This document shows, in pieces, positions 19,601 through 24,969 of a stretch of DNA of 64,000 bases. The stretch comes from Comamonadaceae bacterium. Lineage in GTDB: Bacteria > Pseudomonadota > Gammaproteobacteria > Burkholderiales > Burkholderiaceae_C. The notes under the pieces are model-generated. The model was not told where the DNA came from. It did not search any database and worked only from the letters and a program-made list of their open reading frames with translations. Position 1 is the stretch's first letter; each line of letters starts with the position of its first letter. A program made the position numbers and the translations under genes. The stretch lies in assembly GCA_947455465.1 (NCBI GenBank), contig CANGNS010000013.1, positions 1 through 64,000 on the forward strand, written 5' to 3'.

Positions 19601-20233
19601 TTAGCGCACCTGCTGCTGCACCAGGTACTTGGCGATGATGTCCAAAAAATAGCGCTTGGTGCTGCTGGCCGTTTGCGGCCGGATCAAGGCATGGTAGCTG
19701 CCCACTACCGACAAATAAAACAGCGTGGCCAGATCGGCAGCGGTTTTTTCCTCGCCCACCAGGCGCGTGAATTTGCGGGTAAACAGCGCAATGCGCATGT
19801 CATCGGTTTTGCGCAGCATGGTGGCCACCACCGCGTCGCGGCGGCCCAGGCCACGCAAGGCCAGCTCAAAGCGGATGTTGTTCAGGTCATCGCCACCAAA
19901 GGCCAGCACGGTATCGAGCATGGCTTCAATGTCCTTGACGGGGTCGGGATGGGCGTCGCTTTGCAGGCCAGGGTAGAGCGCGATTTCGCGCGCGCGCCAG
20001 CGCTCTATCAGGGCGGCGATCAGGTCGGCATGGTCTTTGAAATGCCAGTAAAAACTGCCCCGCGTCACCTTCAGGTCCTCGGCCAGCGACAGCACCCGTA
20101 TGGCGTCAAAGCCATGGTCTACCGCGGCGCGAAAGGCCGCGTCCAGCCAATCGTCGCGCCCCAGGCGCGAGGCCAGCGTGCGGTCGGTGCCGCTTTGGAC
20201 AGAGGTTTTGCGCGCCGAAGTCGGGTTCGCCAT
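19601..20233 (-). CDS. TetR/AcrR-family transcriptional regulator
   Basis: The 210-residue protein has an N-terminal TetR helix-turn-helix (about 25-70; IRVLSLAEDLKVTRGSFYWHFKDHADLIAALIERW) and a variable helical ligand domain. It is divergent from the sulfatase/propeller/monooxygenase operon and is its likely regulator; an 18-bp dyad lies between them. A TATAAA -10-like box (20245-20240) ends 7 bp before the ATG and no Shine-Dalgarno is visible, so the mRNA may be leaderless. The ligand is unknown. Confidence 0.92.
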   Translation of the reverse strand: MANPTSARKTSVQSGTDRTLASRLGRDDWLDAAFRAAVDHGFDAIRVLSLAEDLKVTRGSFYWHFKDHADLIAALIERWRAREIALYPGLQSDAHPDPVKDIEAMLDTVLAFGGDDLNNIRFELALRGLGRRDAVVATMLRKTDDMRIALFTRKFTRLVGEEKTAADLATLFYLSVVGSYHALIRPQTASSTKRYFLDIIAKYLVQQQVR

Positions 20234-20330
20234 AGGGAATTTATAGTCAAGTTGGAGCCGGTATTGTGACCCAAGCAGCGTCGCCCAGGTGCCTGCGGGC
20301 GCGCCGAGGGCGTGCTACATTGCCAGCAAA

Positions 20331-20348
20331 GTACATATCTGTATGGAC
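20331..20348. promoter_or_regulatory. Candidate TetR operator in the sulfatase divergent intergenic region
   Basis: GTACATATCTGTATGGAC is an imperfect dyad with 12 of 18 positions symmetric (GT-x-CATA-N4-TATG-x-AC). Its size and position are typical for a TetR dimer, 43 bp ahead of the sulfatase start. The regulator gene is on the other side of the same 158-bp gap. I see no convincing -35/-10 pair for the sulfatase direction. Confidence 0.4.
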
Positions 20349-20391
20349 GTCCGCTTGCGCAAGGCCGGCATCCCCTTTGGAGACATCGCTC

Positions 20392-22227
20392 ATGAATATT
20401 GGCGCAAAGGCCATGGCCCGTACGCTGCTGGCAGCAAGTTTGGCCGCTGGATGCAGCGCGGGCGTGCTGTACGCATCAAGCCCTGCGGCCGCAAACGCAC
20501 CGGCCACCGGCGCCATCGTGGCCGCCAAGTCGGGCAAGCGACCCAATATCGTCGTGCTGGTCGCCGACGACTGGGGCTTTACCGACCTGGGTGCTTTTGG
20601 CGGCGAGATGGCCACGCCGCACCTGGACGCCCTGGCCCACGCGGGCGTGCGCTTTTCGAACTTCCATGTGGCGGCCTCCTGCTCGCCCACGCGCTCGATG
20701 CTGCTGACCGGCGTGGACAACCACCGCAATGGCGTGGGCAATTTGCGTGAAGCCATGCCCACCGAGCACCTGGGCAAACCGGGCTACCAGGGCTCGCTCA
20801 CGCCCCAGGTGGTTACGGTGGCGTCGCTCTTGCAAGACAGCGGCTACCGCACCTATGTTGCTGGCAAGTGGAATGTGGGCTCAGAACCCCACAACCTGCC
20901 CAACCGGCGCGGCTTTGATAAGTCGATCGTGCAGGGCGATACCGGCTCGGACAACTGGGAGCCGGCCAAGCAGTACCTGCCGCACTTGCCGCAGGTGTAT
21001 TGGTTTGAGGACGGGCAAACCGCCAAGATGCCTGCCGAGTTTTATTCCTCGCAGTATTTTGTGGACCGCACCATCGGCTACATTGAGGCGGATAGCCGCA
21101 AAGACCAGCCCTTTTTTGCCTACGTGGGTTTTCAGGCCAACCATGTGCCGGTGCAGGCGCCGGCCGAGTTCATTGCCAAGTACAAAGGCCGTTACCACGC
21201 GGGTTGGACTGCTTTGCGCGCGCAGCGGCTGGCCAAAGCCATAGAGCTGGGCATCGTGCCGCCGGGCACGCAATTACGCACCATGTCCACCACCGGCGAC
21301 TGGGACGCTTTGCCCGCCAAGGAGCGCTTGCACATGGAGCGCCAGATGGAGGTCTACGCCGCCATGGCCGAGGCCATGGACTTTCATGTCGGGCGCTTGG
21401 TCGATTACCTGAAAAAGTCCGGCCAATACGACAACACCCATTTTGTGTTTTTGTCGGACAACGGCGCCGAGGGCTCGGACTACCACGAAGCGCAGCCATG
21501 GCTGGTGTTCAACTACAAGCAAGACACCGAGACCTTGGGCGCCAAGGGCACTTACGGGATCCCCGGCCCGGGCTGGGCCAGCGCCTCGGCCTCGCCTTTG
21601 TACACCTATAAATTTTGGTCGGGCGAGGGCGGTATCCGTACCCCGATGCTGATGGCTGGGCCCGGCGTGCGTCAGGCAAACCGCGTGGAGGGCGCGCTCA
21701 CCCACGTGACCGATATCACCCCCACCTTGCTAGATTTGGCCCAGGTGGCGCCGCATCGGGGCAGCTACCGCGGCGCGCCCGTGGAGCCCATCGTCGGGCG
21801 CAGTTTGCTGCCGCTGTTGCAGGGCGGCACCACCGCCGTGCGCGGGCCCGGACAGGTGCTGGGTTATGAGTTGTCGGGCAACGCCGCTTTGTTCAAAGAC
21901 CACCTCAAGTTGGTGCGCAATATTGCGCCGCTGGGCGATGGCCAATGGCATCTGTACGACTTGCGCAGCGACCCGGGCGAAACCCAGGACCTGCGCGATG
22001 CCTTGCCCCAAGAGTTTGCCACCATGCAAACCGACTTTGCTGCTTGGTCGCAGGCCAACCAGGTGCTGGACATTCCGGCCGGCTACAGCCCACAAAAACA
22101 GGTCATGATCAATGGCTTTTGGCGCTACTGGCTGCCCGTCTGGGGCAAGGAAATGGGCGCGGTGTTGGTGGGCTTGGTGCTATTGACGCTCTGGTGGAGC
22201 GTGCGCCGGCGTCGGCGCCGCGCATGA
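20392..22227 (+). CDS. Arylsulfatase-family (type I) sulfatase with C-terminal membrane anchor
   Basis: The 611-residue sulfatase has an N-terminal signal-like segment and the alkaline-phosphatase-like fold. Metal-ligand Asps are in VLVADDWGF (59-60), the formylglycine-forming Cys97 in CSPTR (97-101), Lys159 in AGKWNVG, and the second metal motif in LSDNGAEGSDYHE. The usual GKWHLG reads GKWNVG, so the catalytic-site His is Asn161. The C-terminus has one hydrophobic helix (GAVLVGLVLLTLWW) and a run of Arg, suggesting anchoring in the inner membrane with the enzyme outside. Start 20392 (MNIGAKAM) is preceded by TTTGGAGA. The stop overlaps the next gene (ATGA). Confidence 0.9.
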   Translation: MNIGAKAMARTLLAASLAAGCSAGVLYASSPAAANAPATGAIVAAKSGKRPNIVVLVADDWGFTDLGAFGGEMATPHLDALAHAGVRFSNFHVAASCSPTRSMLLTGVDNHRNGVGNLREAMPTEHLGKPGYQGSLTPQVVTVASLLQDSGYRTYVAGKWNVGSEPHNLPNRRGFDKSIVQGDTGSDNWEPAKQYLPHLPQVYWFEDGQTAKMPAEFYSSQYFVDRTIGYIEADSRKDQPFFAYVGFQANHVPVQAPAEFIAKYKGRYHAGWTALRAQRLAKAIELGIVPPGTQLRTMSTTGDWDALPAKERLHMERQMEVYAAMAEAMDFHVGRLVDYLKKSGQYDNTHFVFLSDNGAEGSDYHEAQPWLVFNYKQDTETLGAKGTYGIPGPGWASASASPLYTYKFWSGEGGIRTPMLMAGPGVRQANRVEGALTHVTDITPTLLDLAQVAPHRGSYRGAPVEPIVGRSLLPLLQGGTTAVRGPGQVLGYELSGNAALFKDHLKLVRNIAPLGDGQWHLYDLRSDPGETQDLRDALPQEFATMQTDFAAWSQANQVLDIPAGYSPQKQVMINGFWRYWLPVWGKEMGAVLVGLVLLTLWWSVRRRRRRA

Positions 22228-23474
22228 GCGCAGGCTACTACGGCAGCCCCTGGCCGGCCGAAGACGGCGGGCCGGCGCGCCTGCAAACGGCCGCACCGGG
22301 CTGGGACTGGAAACTGCAGCCCCACGAGCGCCTGCAATGCCGCACCCGCAACACCACGCTGTCGACCATGACGGTGCTGGGCGATCCGGGTCAGCTGTAT
22401 CTTCTAACCCACTCGGCGCTGCGCGCCCATATCGGACTGGCCACGACGGCCTGCGTGGAGCGCATCGACCCGCACAGCCTGCGCACCCTGGAGCGCTCGC
22501 CGCGTTTGCCCGGCGGCCCGATGTGGCCGGGCGGCATGGCGATCCACCGCAACGGCGATATCTACGTGGTCTACGGCCGCTATGCACATCGCCTGGACCG
22601 GCATTGCCAGCCCAAGCAGTCCCTGCAACTGCCTATCGATCAGCCCTACAACTCCTTTGTGGTGCTGGACAACGGGCTGATCGTTACCAAAAACCTGTCG
22701 GACACCGTGGCCGCGCAGCTGGTGGTGCTAGACCCGGAGCGCTTGCAAACCGTGAGCGCACCGCTGAACTGCCCCGAGCCATCGATTGCGCGCCTCAGTG
22801 CGGTGGGCAATACCGTCTATGTGGTCGGCGTGCGCTCGATATTTCGCTACCACTGGGACGAAGCGGCGCAAGCCCTGCGCATGGATCGCGATTGGCGCTG
22901 GGACTACGTTGGCGCCACCAGCCAAAGCTACGGCTGGGACGTGGTGATCGACGGCCACAACGCCTGGTTTATGGACAACGGACGCCATCGCTACCGCATC
23001 AATATGCATGGCGCTGGGGTGTCCCCAACACCCAACCGCTTGCTACGCGTCTCGCTGCACGACAGCCAAGACCATAGCGCCGTGGCGATCAGCGGCCAGG
23101 CCGGCGGCAGTATCACCAATCCGCCGCTGGTTGATGTGCAGCGCCAGATCGTGCTGGGCTATGACGCGGCCAACCGCTTTTTACGCGCCTGGCGCATTGG
23201 TTCTGCCGGGCAAGGGCTCGCGCCCTTGTGGGAAAAGCCCCATTTCGGCGTGGCCAGCCATATGGTGCTCCTGCCCACCAGCGGCCAGGTGGTGCTCAAT
23301 GATTACCGCCGCTGGGGCGAAGAGGTGGTGGTGCTCGACATTGCCAGCGGCGCCGAGTGCGCCCGCGTGCGCGTGGGGGGCATCACCCAGGGTGTAGTCT
23401 TCCCCAGCGTGGGTTGGGAGCGGGATATGTATTGGTGCTCTATGGGGCGACTTTCGCGGGTGTTTGTGGCATGA
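22224..23474 (+). CDS. Unrecognised protein, probable beta-propeller, in sulfatase operon
   Basis: I do not recognise this 416-residue protein. It has no obvious signal peptide or membrane helix. It contains repeated short beta-strand-like blocks ending in tyrosine, tryptophan or aspartate, such as GGMAIHRNGDIYVVYGRY, NSFVVLDNGLIVTKNL, SAVGNTVYVVGVRSIFRY and HMVLLPTSGQVVLNDY. These look like propeller blades of the SMP-30/NHL/PQQ type. Start and stop overlap both neighbours by ATGA, so it is translated in step with the sulfatase and the monooxygenase. A lactonase, hydrolase or binding role is possible but unproven. Confidence 0.7.
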   Translation: MSAGYYGSPWPAEDGGPARLQTAAPGWDWKLQPHERLQCRTRNTTLSTMTVLGDPGQLYLLTHSALRAHIGLATTACVERIDPHSLRTLERSPRLPGGPMWPGGMAIHRNGDIYVVYGRYAHRLDRHCQPKQSLQLPIDQPYNSFVVLDNGLIVTKNLSDTVAAQLVVLDPERLQTVSAPLNCPEPSIARLSAVGNTVYVVGVRSIFRYHWDEAAQALRMDRDWRWDYVGATSQSYGWDVVIDGHNAWFMDNGRHRYRINMHGAGVSPTPNRLLRVSLHDSQDHSAVAISGQAGGSITNPPLVDVQRQIVLGYDAANRFLRAWRIGSAGQGLAPLWEKPHFGVASHMVLLPTSGQVVLNDYRRWGEEVVVLDIASGAECARVRVGGITQGVVFPSVGWERDMYWCSMGRLSRVFVA

Positions 23475-24943
23475 GCGAGACGCTGCAGGGAACCGTCGTC
23501 GACACCCTGATCGTGGGGGCCGGGCTGTCAGGCATCGGCAGTGCGGTGCATTTGCGCCAAGGCCTGCCCGATGCGTCGGTGCTGATTTTGGAGGCGCGCG
23601 AACGCATTGGCGGCACCTGGGATTTGTTTCGCTACCCCGGTGTGCGCTCCGACTCCGATATGCATACGCTGGGCTATGCCTTCAAGCCCTGGACCGGCGC
23701 CAAGGCGATTGCCGATGGCCCGTCCATCCTGCGCTATATCGAGGAGACGGCGCAGGAGCAGGGCGTTTTGCCGCTGATCCGCTTTGGCCATCGGGTGCTG
23801 CAAGCCGACTGGGACAGCGCCAGTGCCCGCTGGACGCTGCAGGTCCTGCGTGTGGCCGACGGGCAAACGCTGCGCCTGCAATGCCGCTTTTTGCTCCTGT
23901 GCAGTGGCTACTACAACTACCAGCACGGCCACGCACCGCACTTTGACGGGCAGGAAAATTTTGCCGGGCGCATCGTGCATCCACAGCACTGGCCCCAGGA
24001 CCTGGATTACCGGGGCCGCCAGGTGGTGGTGATCGGCAGCGGCGCCACCGCCATGACGCTGGTGCCCGAGATGGCCAAACTGGCCGCCCGCGTAACGCTG
24101 TTGCAGCGTTCGCCCACTTTTGTGGTGGACCGGCCCAGCACCGACGCACTGGGCGATGGCTTGCGCCGCCTACTGCCGGCCGCCGCCGCCTACGCGCTCA
24201 CACGCTGGAAAAACGTGCTGACCGGCATGTTTTACTATGCCTTGGCCAGACGCAAACCCGAATTGGCCACGCGCAGGCTCTTGCAAGGCGTGGCCCAGGC
24301 GCTGCCCGCGGGCTATCCGGTGGCCCAGCATTTCACCCCCCGCTACAAGCCCTGGGACCAGCGCATCTGCCTGGTGCCCGATGGCGATTTGTTCGCCGCT
24401 TTGCGTGCGGGCACGGCGCAGATGGTGACCGATACGATTGACCGCTTCGAGGCCGGCGGCATACGCCTGCACAGCGGCGCCTTGTTGCCCGCCGATGTGG
24501 TTGTCAGCGCCACCGGGCTCGATTTGCTGGGATTTGGCGGCATGCAGATTGCCGTCGATGGGCAGGCGCTGGAGGTCAGCCAAGCCTTGTCCTACAAAGG
24601 CATGATGCTGCAAGGCGTGCCCAACTTGGCTTACGTGTTTGGCTACACCAATGCGTCCTGGACCCTCAAGAGTGACTTAACCGGCCAGTACGTGGCCCGT
24701 CTGCTGCGCCACATGCGCCGCCAAGGTCTGGCCACCGTGGTGCCGGTTTTGCAGGACCCGAGCGTGCAGCCCGAGCCCTGGGTGGATTTCAGCTCGGGCT
24801 ATTTCCAGCGTGCCATGGACCGCTTCCCCAAGCAGGGCAGCAAGCGGCCCTGGCGGCTCTACCAGAACTACCTGCGCGACCTGCTGGCGCTGCGCTGGAG
24901 CCCGCTGGCCGACGGCGTACTGCAGTTTCGCAAGCGCGTATAA
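23471..24943 (+). CDS. FAD-dependent Baeyer-Villiger-type monooxygenase
   Basis: The 490-residue flavoprotein has two Rossmann motifs ([13 protein letters not shown] at 16-28 and [11 protein letters not shown] at 185-195) and the GTWD FAD motif. The type I Baeyer-Villiger fingerprint [12 protein letters not shown] is at 164-175 (FxGxxxHxxxW). Such enzymes use NADPH and O2 to turn ketones into esters or lactones. The C-terminal [11 protein letters not shown] is also family-typical. The start at 23471 overlaps the previous stop (ATGA). Third gene of the TetR-controlled operon; the stop codon overlaps a TATAAT box serving the next transcription unit. Confidence 0.9.
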
Positions 24944-24969
24944 TTAAAAAAGCACGATCGTTCTTTTTT
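24939..24969 (+). promoter_or_regulatory. EtfB promoter -10 with adjacent 24-bp palindrome (TetR-type operator candidate)
   Basis: A perfect TATAAT (24939-24944) overlaps the stop of the monooxygenase gene. It is followed at once by a near-perfect 24-bp palindrome (24946-24969): six A, GC, the core ACGATCGT, TC, six T, with only one mismatched pair. No good -35 is visible. Symmetry around ACGATCGT is the kind of site bound by TetR-family repressors of fatty-acid or branched-chain metabolism in beta-proteobacteria. The site would cover the start of transcription. Confidence 0.55.

What the first reader, a model, noticed from the sequence alone, without database searches (positions are those of the whole stretch)
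20233..24943. TetR-controlled operon joining a sulfatase, an unrecognised propeller-like protein and a Baeyer-Villiger monooxygenase
Three genes are locked together by ATGA overlaps and are divergent from a TetR gene with a dyad between them. A membrane-anchored sulfatase, an intact type I BVMO motif ([12 protein letters not shown]) and a 416-residue protein I cannot place suggest one pathway. A sulfate ester may be removed outside the membrane, the freed alcohol or ketone taken in, and a ketone converted to an ester or lactone. The middle protein might open that product. I know of no described system with this exact set.
Basis: partly seen in the sequence, partly recalled or inferred. Interest (0 to 1): 0.72.

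Follow-up and report, generated by a model that had tools for sequence, protein, structure and literature searches.

The report
Sulfatase operon with an unknown propeller
A bacterium related to Rhodoferax carries a repressor-linked operon that pairs a sulfate-removing enzyme with an unclassified propeller-shaped protein, and some relatives, this one included, add a ketone-oxidising enzyme; it looks like part of a pathway for using a sulfated compound that is not yet known.

Summary
A TetR gene is divergent from three genes chained by two ATGA overlaps: a formylglycine-type sulfatase with a C-terminal membrane tail (SULF), a 416-aa protein (MID) and a type I Baeyer-Villiger monooxygenase (BVMO). 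MID matches no Pfam, NCBIfam or PDB sequence and folds confidently (pLDDT 85, pTM 0.87) as an eight-bladed propeller.

In 81 loci, SULF lies directly upstream of MID in 76 of 78 not cut there; BVMO directly follows MID in 27 of 78. The conserved unit is SULF-MID; BVMO is an addition seen in two MID clades. That disfavours MID opening the BVMO product. Elsewhere the pair sits among further sulfatases, formylglycine makers, dehydrogenases, GST-like and haloalkane-dehalogenase-like proteins. Each also occurs without the other: MID without SULF in three loci, SULF without MID in three genomes.

Most likely it is an inducible module for using a lipophilic sulfate ester: desulfation outside the membrane, MID acting on a small molecule inside. 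Substrate, export and MID activity are inferred. MID is lineage-restricted: 18 of 36 same-genus genomes, 10 of 398 of the family, none elsewhere in two samples. New variant of a known kind; moderate interest.

The parts
19601..20233 (-). TetR-family repressor gene, divergent from the operon
   Evidence: PF00440 TetR_N 37.8 bits over residues 30-75
20331..20344 (.). Imperfect dyad GTACATATCTGTAT in the 158-bp TetR-SULF spacer, candidate operator
   Evidence: Sequence; TGTATGG at this place in 9 of 16 aligned spacers and a perfect ATACACTAGTGTAT in L051; not listed as an inverted repeat by the repeat finder
20392..22227 (+). SULF: formylglycine (S1) sulfatase with a C-terminal membrane tail; export is inferred
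   Evidence: PF00884 210.8 bits; best PDB match 1hdh P. aeruginosa AtsA 424 bits; start by codon-usage caller
20680..20694 (+). CSPTR motif: the cysteine that would become formylglycine
   Evidence: Sequence, aligned to the AtsA catalytic motif
20872..20874 (+). Asparagine codon (GKWN) where AtsA has His115, the proposed base for sulfate release
   Evidence: Alignment; role of His115 in PMC5066984; N in 59 and H in 15 of 74 readable family members
22156..22203 (+). C-terminal hydrophobic segment of SULF followed by arginines
   Evidence: Sequence; 64 of 78 family members have such a segment in the last 60 residues by Kyte-Doolittle
22224..23474 (+). MID: 416-aa eight-bladed beta-propeller of an unclassified family, no signal peptide seen by eye
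   Evidence: No family match; AlphaFold2 pLDDT 85.3, pTM 0.87; fold matches
23471..24943 (+). BVMO: type I Baeyer-Villiger monooxygenase, 490 aa
   Evidence: PF00743 47.5 bits; nearest PDB chains are cyclohexanone, phenylacetone and steroid monooxygenases; both fingerprints present
23960..23995 (+). BVMO fingerprint [12 protein letters not shown]
   Evidence: Sequence, pattern test

Best explanation
This is an inducible module for using a lipophilic sulfate ester. Inferred order of events: (1) TetR represses the operon by binding the dyad and lets go when a substrate-derived compound binds it. (2) SULF, exported and held to the inner membrane by its C-terminal tail, is matured to formylglycine by the PF03781 protein encoded elsewhere in the genome and removes sulfate from a hydrophobic sulfated alcohol in the periplasm. 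(3) The freed alcohol enters the cell and is oxidised to a ketone by a dehydrogenase. (4) In this lineage BVMO converts the ketone to an ester, feeding fatty-acid activation and beta-oxidation. (5) MID, a cytoplasmic eight-bladed propeller with strongly conserved residues around its centre, binds or converts a small molecule made from the sulfated substrate, at a step that does not need BVMO. Shown here: gene order, sulfatase and BVMO motifs, MID's predicted fold, its conservation pattern, and its tie to the sulfatase. Not shown: any substrate, any activity, export, or repression.
For: SULF directly upstream of MID in 76 of 78 loci not cut upstream, 52 of 76 with the 4-nt overlap. Sulfatase-related clusters around the pair, families tested on one representative each: FGE-type (PF03781) in 23 and anaerobic sulfatase maturase in 6 of 81 loci, a second S1 sulfatase in 33, and an MBL protein in 39 whose best PDB match is an arylsulfatase, 8gyg. 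The window's own genome encodes one PF03781 protein, set among sulfatase genes, and eight sulfatases, SULF included. Lipid and redox clusters nearby: SDRs (25 and 11 of 81), FadD (12), DsbA-like (42), GST-like (26), haloalkane-dehalogenase-like (30); FadJ, thiolase and fatty acid hydroxylase in only 3, 4 and 3. MID loops called as one face have mean entropy 0.68 against 1.26 for the other, 0 of 10000 shuffles as extreme. BVMO next to MID lies in two separate MID clades, and 10 of 10 BVMO relatives at 67% identity or more, the window's own included, lie next to MID.
Against: SULF occurs without MID in G009, G015 and G023 at 62-69% identity; in G009 much of the island order is kept while MID, TetR, the porin-like and a small gene were not called. 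MID occurs without SULF in the stretches L036, L114 and L117. The contrast between MID faces is driven by the outer CD loops (entropy 1.62): the inner AB loops of the other face (0.76) are as conserved as the BC loops (0.79), so the pattern may be centre against rim rather than one face. Only 33 of 78 SULF relatives pass my N-terminal hydrophobicity cut-off (starts are unsure), so export is not shown. The window lacks a dehydrogenase in the operon. SULF has Asn where AtsA has the His115 base. The 81 loci are mostly related Burkholderiales, picked by MID motifs (80 of 125 found were kept). MID faces were assigned by hand without coordinates. The consensus promoter scan found none.
Confidence: 0.47

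Rival explanations
1. MID is not an enzyme but a scaffold or partner of the sulfatase, in the way BamB serves the BAM complex: it holds SULF or its precursor at the inner membrane before or during export.
For: BamB, YxaL and Rv3035 are among the closest folds. Exact 4-nt overlap with SULF in 52 of 76 pairs. The N-terminal stretch around SPWPAEDGGP is conserved but has low pLDDT, as a docking peptide might. The conservation contrast between faces is not clean.
Against: MID has no signal peptide by eye while SULF looks exported. MID is kept without SULF in the stretches L036, L114 and L117. Many invariant polar residues lie near the centre of the propeller, as in ligand-binding propellers.
Confidence: 0.22
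2. The operon is for sulfur scavenging or detoxification, not for carbon: the sulfatase frees sulfate, and MID and BVMO deal with an unwanted released alcohol or ketone.
For: AtsA of P. [quoted passage not shown] The window operon has no dehydrogenase, transporter or porin.
Against: A divergent TetR, and islands in relatives with redox genes, some beta-oxidation genes and porins, look catabolic rather than sulfur-starvation controlled.
Confidence: 0.25
3. BVMO is functionally unrelated and was placed behind SULF-MID by chance in one ancestor.
For: BVMO directly follows MID in 27 of 78 loci only, and starred branches do not force more than one origin.
Against: The label needs two changes on the MID tree, the overlap is exactly 4 nt in 22 of 27, and a third locus, L116, holds a 60% identical BVMO near the pair.
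Confidence: 0.2
4. SULF is a weakened or altered sulfatase, for example a sulfate carrier or transferase, because the His115 base of AtsA is Asn.
For: GKWN in the window and in 59 of 74 readable family members; His115 is named as the base of the release step (PMC5066984).
Against: The published update of this signature allows N at this place, 13 of the 15 His members also lie next to MID, and the other AtsA site residues that I compared (Asp13, Asp14, Arg55, Lys113, His211, Asp317, Asn318, Lys375) are kept.
Confidence: 0.1

Closest known systems
Pseudomonas aeruginosa arylsulfatase AtsA (1hdh, SulfAtlas S1_4)
   Same: Best PDB match of SULF, 424 bits over the catalytic part; maturation motif, calcium ligands, Lys113, His211 and Lys375 kept
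   Different: SULF has an N-terminal export-like stretch, a C-terminal membrane tail, and Asn for His115; that AtsA lacks a signal and a MID-like neighbour is recalled
Type I Baeyer-Villiger monooxygenases (cyclohexanone, phenylacetone, steroid monooxygenases; EthA/MymA likeness is recalled)
   Same: Both fingerprints and the N-terminal nucleotide-binding part; EthA is also paired with a repressor, EthR (listing and abstract starts; the divergent order is recalled)
   Different: PDB matches end at about residue 240; the operon partners here are a sulfatase and MID
SLF module of Psychrobacter plasmid pP62BP1 (PMC10779009, abstract, outline and passages seen)
   Same: Repressor plus operon that starts from a sulfate ester and is predicted to end in acyl-CoA; induced by an intermediate, lauryl aldehyde
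   Different: AraC/XylS-type regulator, an alkyl sulfatase, alcohol and aldehyde oxidoreductases and a CoA synthetase; no propeller and no monooxygenase named
Eight-bladed propellers BamB, YxaL, Rv3035, tetrathionate hydrolase
   Different: 10-16% identity in the listed rows; exported proteins by recall, while MID shows no signal peptide and no sequence match to them

Membership tests
Formylglycine (S1) sulfatases | Sulfatase domain PF00884 | tested here: met
   210.8 bits against a cut-off of 25
Formylglycine (S1) sulfatases | C/S-x-P-x-R maturation motif | tested here: met
   CSPTR in the window; C[SA]P[TS]R found in 70 of 78 family members, 8 not read by the pattern
Formylglycine (S1) sulfatases | Active-site base His115 (AtsA numbering) | tested here: not met
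   Asn in the window; H is 81% conserved and N is allowed in the published pattern (PMC5066984), so it is not a strict family marker; this lowers the activity claim
Formylglycine (S1) sulfatases | A maturase in the genome | tested here: met
   One PF03781 match, 229 bits, at C22 of the window's genome, among sulfatase genes
Formylglycine (S1) sulfatases | Hydrolysis of sulfate esters | not testable with these tools
   Needs an assay
Type I Baeyer-Villiger monooxygenases | Fingerprint FxGxxxHxxxW[PD] | tested here: met
   [12 protein letters not shown] in the window; 25 of 28 cluster members match, L084, L087 and L091 do not
Type I Baeyer-Villiger monooxygenases | Fingerprint [AG]GxWxxxx[FY]P[GM]xxxD (recalled) | tested here: met
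   [15 protein letters not shown] in the window; 28 of 28
Type I Baeyer-Villiger monooxygenases | Ketone to ester activity | not testable with these tools
   Needs an assay
SMP-30/gluconolactonase lactonases (considered for MID) | SGL sequence profile PF08450 | tested here: not met
   No match for the window protein at E 1; 1 of 50 homologues at E 0.03
SMP-30/gluconolactonase lactonases (considered for MID) | Six-bladed propeller with metal site | tested here: inconclusive
   The model's strands group into eight blades (grouped by hand); the metal site was not tested
BamB / PQQ-like eight-bladed propellers (considered for MID) | Eight-bladed propeller fold | tested here: met
BamB / PQQ-like eight-bladed propellers (considered for MID) | PQQ_2 sequence profile PF13360 | tested here: not met
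   1 of 50 homologues at E 0.018, window none
BamB / PQQ-like eight-bladed propellers (considered for MID) | Signal peptide or lipobox | tested here: inconclusive
   By eye the N-terminus MSAGYYGSPWPAEDGGP has no hydrophobic stretch; no signal predictor was on hand

The most novel reading that the evidence does not exclude
SULF-MID is the entry module of a freshwater pathway for halogenated sulfolipids such as the chlorosulfolipids of chrysophyte algae. Several sulfatase types remove the sulfates, haloalkane-dehalogenase-like and GST-like proteins remove halogen, BVMO cleaves mid-chain ketones, and MID is a new eight-bladed propeller enzyme acting on the desulfated chain. The link to chlorosulfolipids rests on recall of that chemistry, not on any call.
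Probability: 0.06. Interest if true: 0.82.

Novelty: new variant of a known kind. Interest (0 to 1): 0.42.

Why it matters
MID is a conserved protein family with a confident fold and a near-constant genomic partner, yet no name in Pfam, NCBIfam or, by sequence, the PDB. Its tie to a sulfatase gives a concrete way to find its function. The islands suggest that bacteria related to Rhodoferax, Polaromonas and Roseateles use sulfated organic compounds that are not yet identified; that many are from lakes is inferred from sample names such as Baikal-deep and PowLak16. If MID is an enzyme, it would be a new activity on the eight-bladed propeller.

Tried and rejected
MID as a BVMO-product lactonase: disfavoured, because 51 of 78 loci have no BVMO directly behind MID and 8 of the 9 other same-genus MID genomes without the adjacent BVMO have no BVMO match at E 1e-100. 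MID as a member of a named propeller family by sequence: no support. No arylsulfotransferase or lactonase appears among the 50 listed rows; this excludes nothing. SULF-MID fusion: long open frames of 821-1110 aa reported for three loci were read and are shadow frames ahead of MID, not the sulfatase frame. Steroid pathway: no HsaD match over the cut-off in the genome, best 188.5 of 400 bits; one family only, so weak. The haloalkane-dehalogenase link is weak for the window itself: its genome has two matches over the cut-off, but their neighbourhoods hold only distant matches to other neighbour clusters. Plasmid search for MID: no match. Literature: sulfatase with Baeyer-Villiger monooxygenase, operon and TetR gave 2 papers; chlorosulfolipid with degradation and bacteria 2; three of sulfatase, haloalkane dehalogenase, gene cluster, Comamonadaceae 7, of which I opened PMC10779009; GKWN with sulfatase 0. 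Of the listings I opened only PMC5066984 (listed). No listed title describes this gene set; most subscription papers are not held. One search was a mistaken alignment with a one-base reference and was not used. My first gene caller placed long false antisense genes and was replaced by a codon-usage caller; all neighbour counts rest on that caller and on clusters at 35% identity or more. On rechecking, the face contrast of MID proved to rest mostly on the CD loops; I lowered the main confidence from 0.50 to 0.47 and raised the scaffold rival from 0.20 to 0.22 for that.
Full report
What is there. Four genes form a divergent unit: TetR at 19601-20233 (-), then SULF 20392-22227, MID 22224-23474 and BVMO 23471-24943 on the + strand. 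SULF-MID and MID-BVMO overlap by ATGA. The etfBA genes and an acyl-CoA dehydrogenase follow after 143 bp.

The sulfatase. SULF matches PF00884 with 210.8 bits. Its best solved relative is P. aeruginosa AtsA, 1hdh, with 424 bits. In that alignment Asp13, Asp14, Arg55, Lys113, His211, Asp317, Asn318 and Lys375 are kept, the cysteine of CSPTR faces a letter A in the chain (probably the modified residue), and His115 is Asn. PMC5066984 (start of abstract, passages, and sections 7 and 8 seen) names His115 as the base for sulfate release, gives H as 81% conserved at that place in an alignment of 4058 sequences, and includes N in the updated pattern. Among 78 members of the SULF cluster, 74 have a readable GKWx: N in 59, H in 15; 13 of the 15 lie next to MID. 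A hydrophobic stretch in the last 60 residues is found in 64 of 78; an N-terminal one passes my cut-off in only 33 of 78, with unsure starts. So the membrane tail is well supported and export is inferred. The window's genome has one PF03781 protein and eight sulfatases, SULF included.

Distribution. MID was found in 18 of 36 other same-genus genomes and 0 of 24 others of the order in that call, and in 10 of 398 other family genomes, two of them (G143, G320) only by short or low-scoring pieces. No other genome matched in samples of 398 from the order and 397 from the phylum, which overlap. A scan of genome contigs gave 125 relatives, of which the tool kept the best 80. Most are metagenome-assembled genomes labelled Rhodoferax, Comamonas, Comamonadaceae or beta proteobacterium; named isolates include Roseateles toxinivorans DSM 16998, Pseudomonas sp. 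N040 and Sphingomonas sp. AR_OL41.

Neighbourhood. I examined those 80 loci plus the window, 81 in all. SULF is directly upstream of MID on the same strand in 76; 3 are cut by a contig end; 2 lack it (L114, L117), their genomes not having been searched for SULF elsewhere. The overlap is exactly 4 nt in 52 of 76. Directly downstream, of 78 not cut there, lie BVMO in 27, an SDR in 19, an MBL protein in 18 (5 of them on the other strand) and others in 14. In the 18 same-genus contigs, SULF adjoins MID in 16; one is a fragment (L037) and in one (L036) MID stands beside unrelated genes, in a genome without a close SULF match. The converse also holds: G009, G015 and G023 have a SULF relative but no MID. 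In G009 the order seen in L067, L075 and L080 is largely kept, but MID, TetR, a porin-like gene and a small gene were not called; whether MID was lost or never gained is not shown. Four more distant SULF paralogues that I read, at 50-55% identity and one of them in the window's genome, have no MID. So the tie is strong but not obligate.

What the islands hold. By cluster, loci out of 81, families tested on one representative each: second S1 sulfatase 33, FGE-type 23, anaerobic sulfatase maturase 6, MBL protein 39, haloalkane-dehalogenase-like 30, GST-like 26, DsbA-like 42, SDRs 25 and 11, MetA-like porin 18, PF10118 23, FadD 12, thiolase 4, FadJ 3, fatty acid hydroxylase 3. The MBL representative matches the arylsulfatase 8gyg (88.9 bits) better than ribonuclease Z (60.7 bits), so it may be a zinc arylsulfatase of the kind that PMC5066984 sets beside ribonuclease Z. 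The haloalkane-dehalogenase-like representative scores 442.5 bits against a cut-off of 265 for NF002043, and all 31 members have a DWG motif. These clusters are rarer in BVMO-bearing loci: haloalkane-dehalogenase-like 4, DsbA-like 3 and MBL 4 of 28. The window has a trimmed version.

BVMO. Both fingerprints are present. All 10 relatives at 67% identity or more in 61 genomes, the window's own included, lie next to MID. On the MID tree of 81 rows, BVMO next to MID needs 2 changes (shuffled mean 20.7), and well-supported branches force only 1. L116 carries a BVMO 60% identical to the window's further away in the same locus.

Regulation. The TetR-SULF spacer is 158 bp. Its dyad is imperfect in the window but sits where relatives have a better one; the TGTATGG half-site is in 9 of 16 aligned spacers. 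Of the 7 without it, L039, L041, L043, L044, L045 and L047 group closest to the window by MID, so conservation is patchy. The consensus promoter scan found none.

Conclusion. The operon is real as a gene chain. The conserved unit is a sulfatase with a membrane tail, overlapping a new propeller family, with BVMO added in some lineages. I think it serves use of a lipophilic sulfate ester (confidence 0.47) and that MID most likely binds or converts a small molecule inside the cell. No substrate or activity is shown. PMC10779009, of which I saw the abstract, outline and passages, describes the nearest tested operon in concept that I found, with different parts.

Noticed in passing
24946-24969: Palindromic AAAAAAGCACGATCGTTCTTTTTT between BVMO and etfB; the core ACG[ACT]TCGT is found upstream of etfB in 11 of 22 loci. 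Probably an operator of etfBA, which would make etfBA a separate unit.
   Followed up: partly
L105:2410-3486 and the same cluster in 38 other loci: Metallo-beta-lactamase-fold protein near SULF-MID, its representative closest in the PDB to an arylsulfatase: S1 and possibly S4-like sulfatases side by side.
   Followed up: partly
second sulfatase cluster, 33 loci: 16 of 33 members read C-T-V-S-R where CxPxR is expected, an odd formylglycine motif; 9 read CxPSR and the rest were not read by my patterns.
   Followed up: no
L139 and L140 (G000:C22): The window's genome has a second island with five sulfatases, a PF03781 protein and a large receptor-like gene; one sulfatase there is 55% identical to SULF but has no MID.
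   Followed up: partly
30 of 81 loci: Haloalkane-dehalogenase-like cluster (NF002043 over cut-off for the representative) inside sulfatase islands.
   Followed up: partly
L036:8568-9830: MID beside unrelated genes, in a genome without a close SULF match: it may have a use of its own.
   Followed up: partly
L161:6240-9175: In G009 SULF is followed directly by the MBL gene, in an island order otherwise much like that of MID-bearing relatives; a useful natural comparison for what MID does.
   Followed up: no
MID residues 4-21 (22233-22286): Conserved SPWPxEDGGPxRLQ stretch in a region of low pLDDT.
   Followed up: no
G008:C390:4104-5903: The SULF relative beside MID in G008 is reported with one TGA inside; left as it is.
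   Followed up: no
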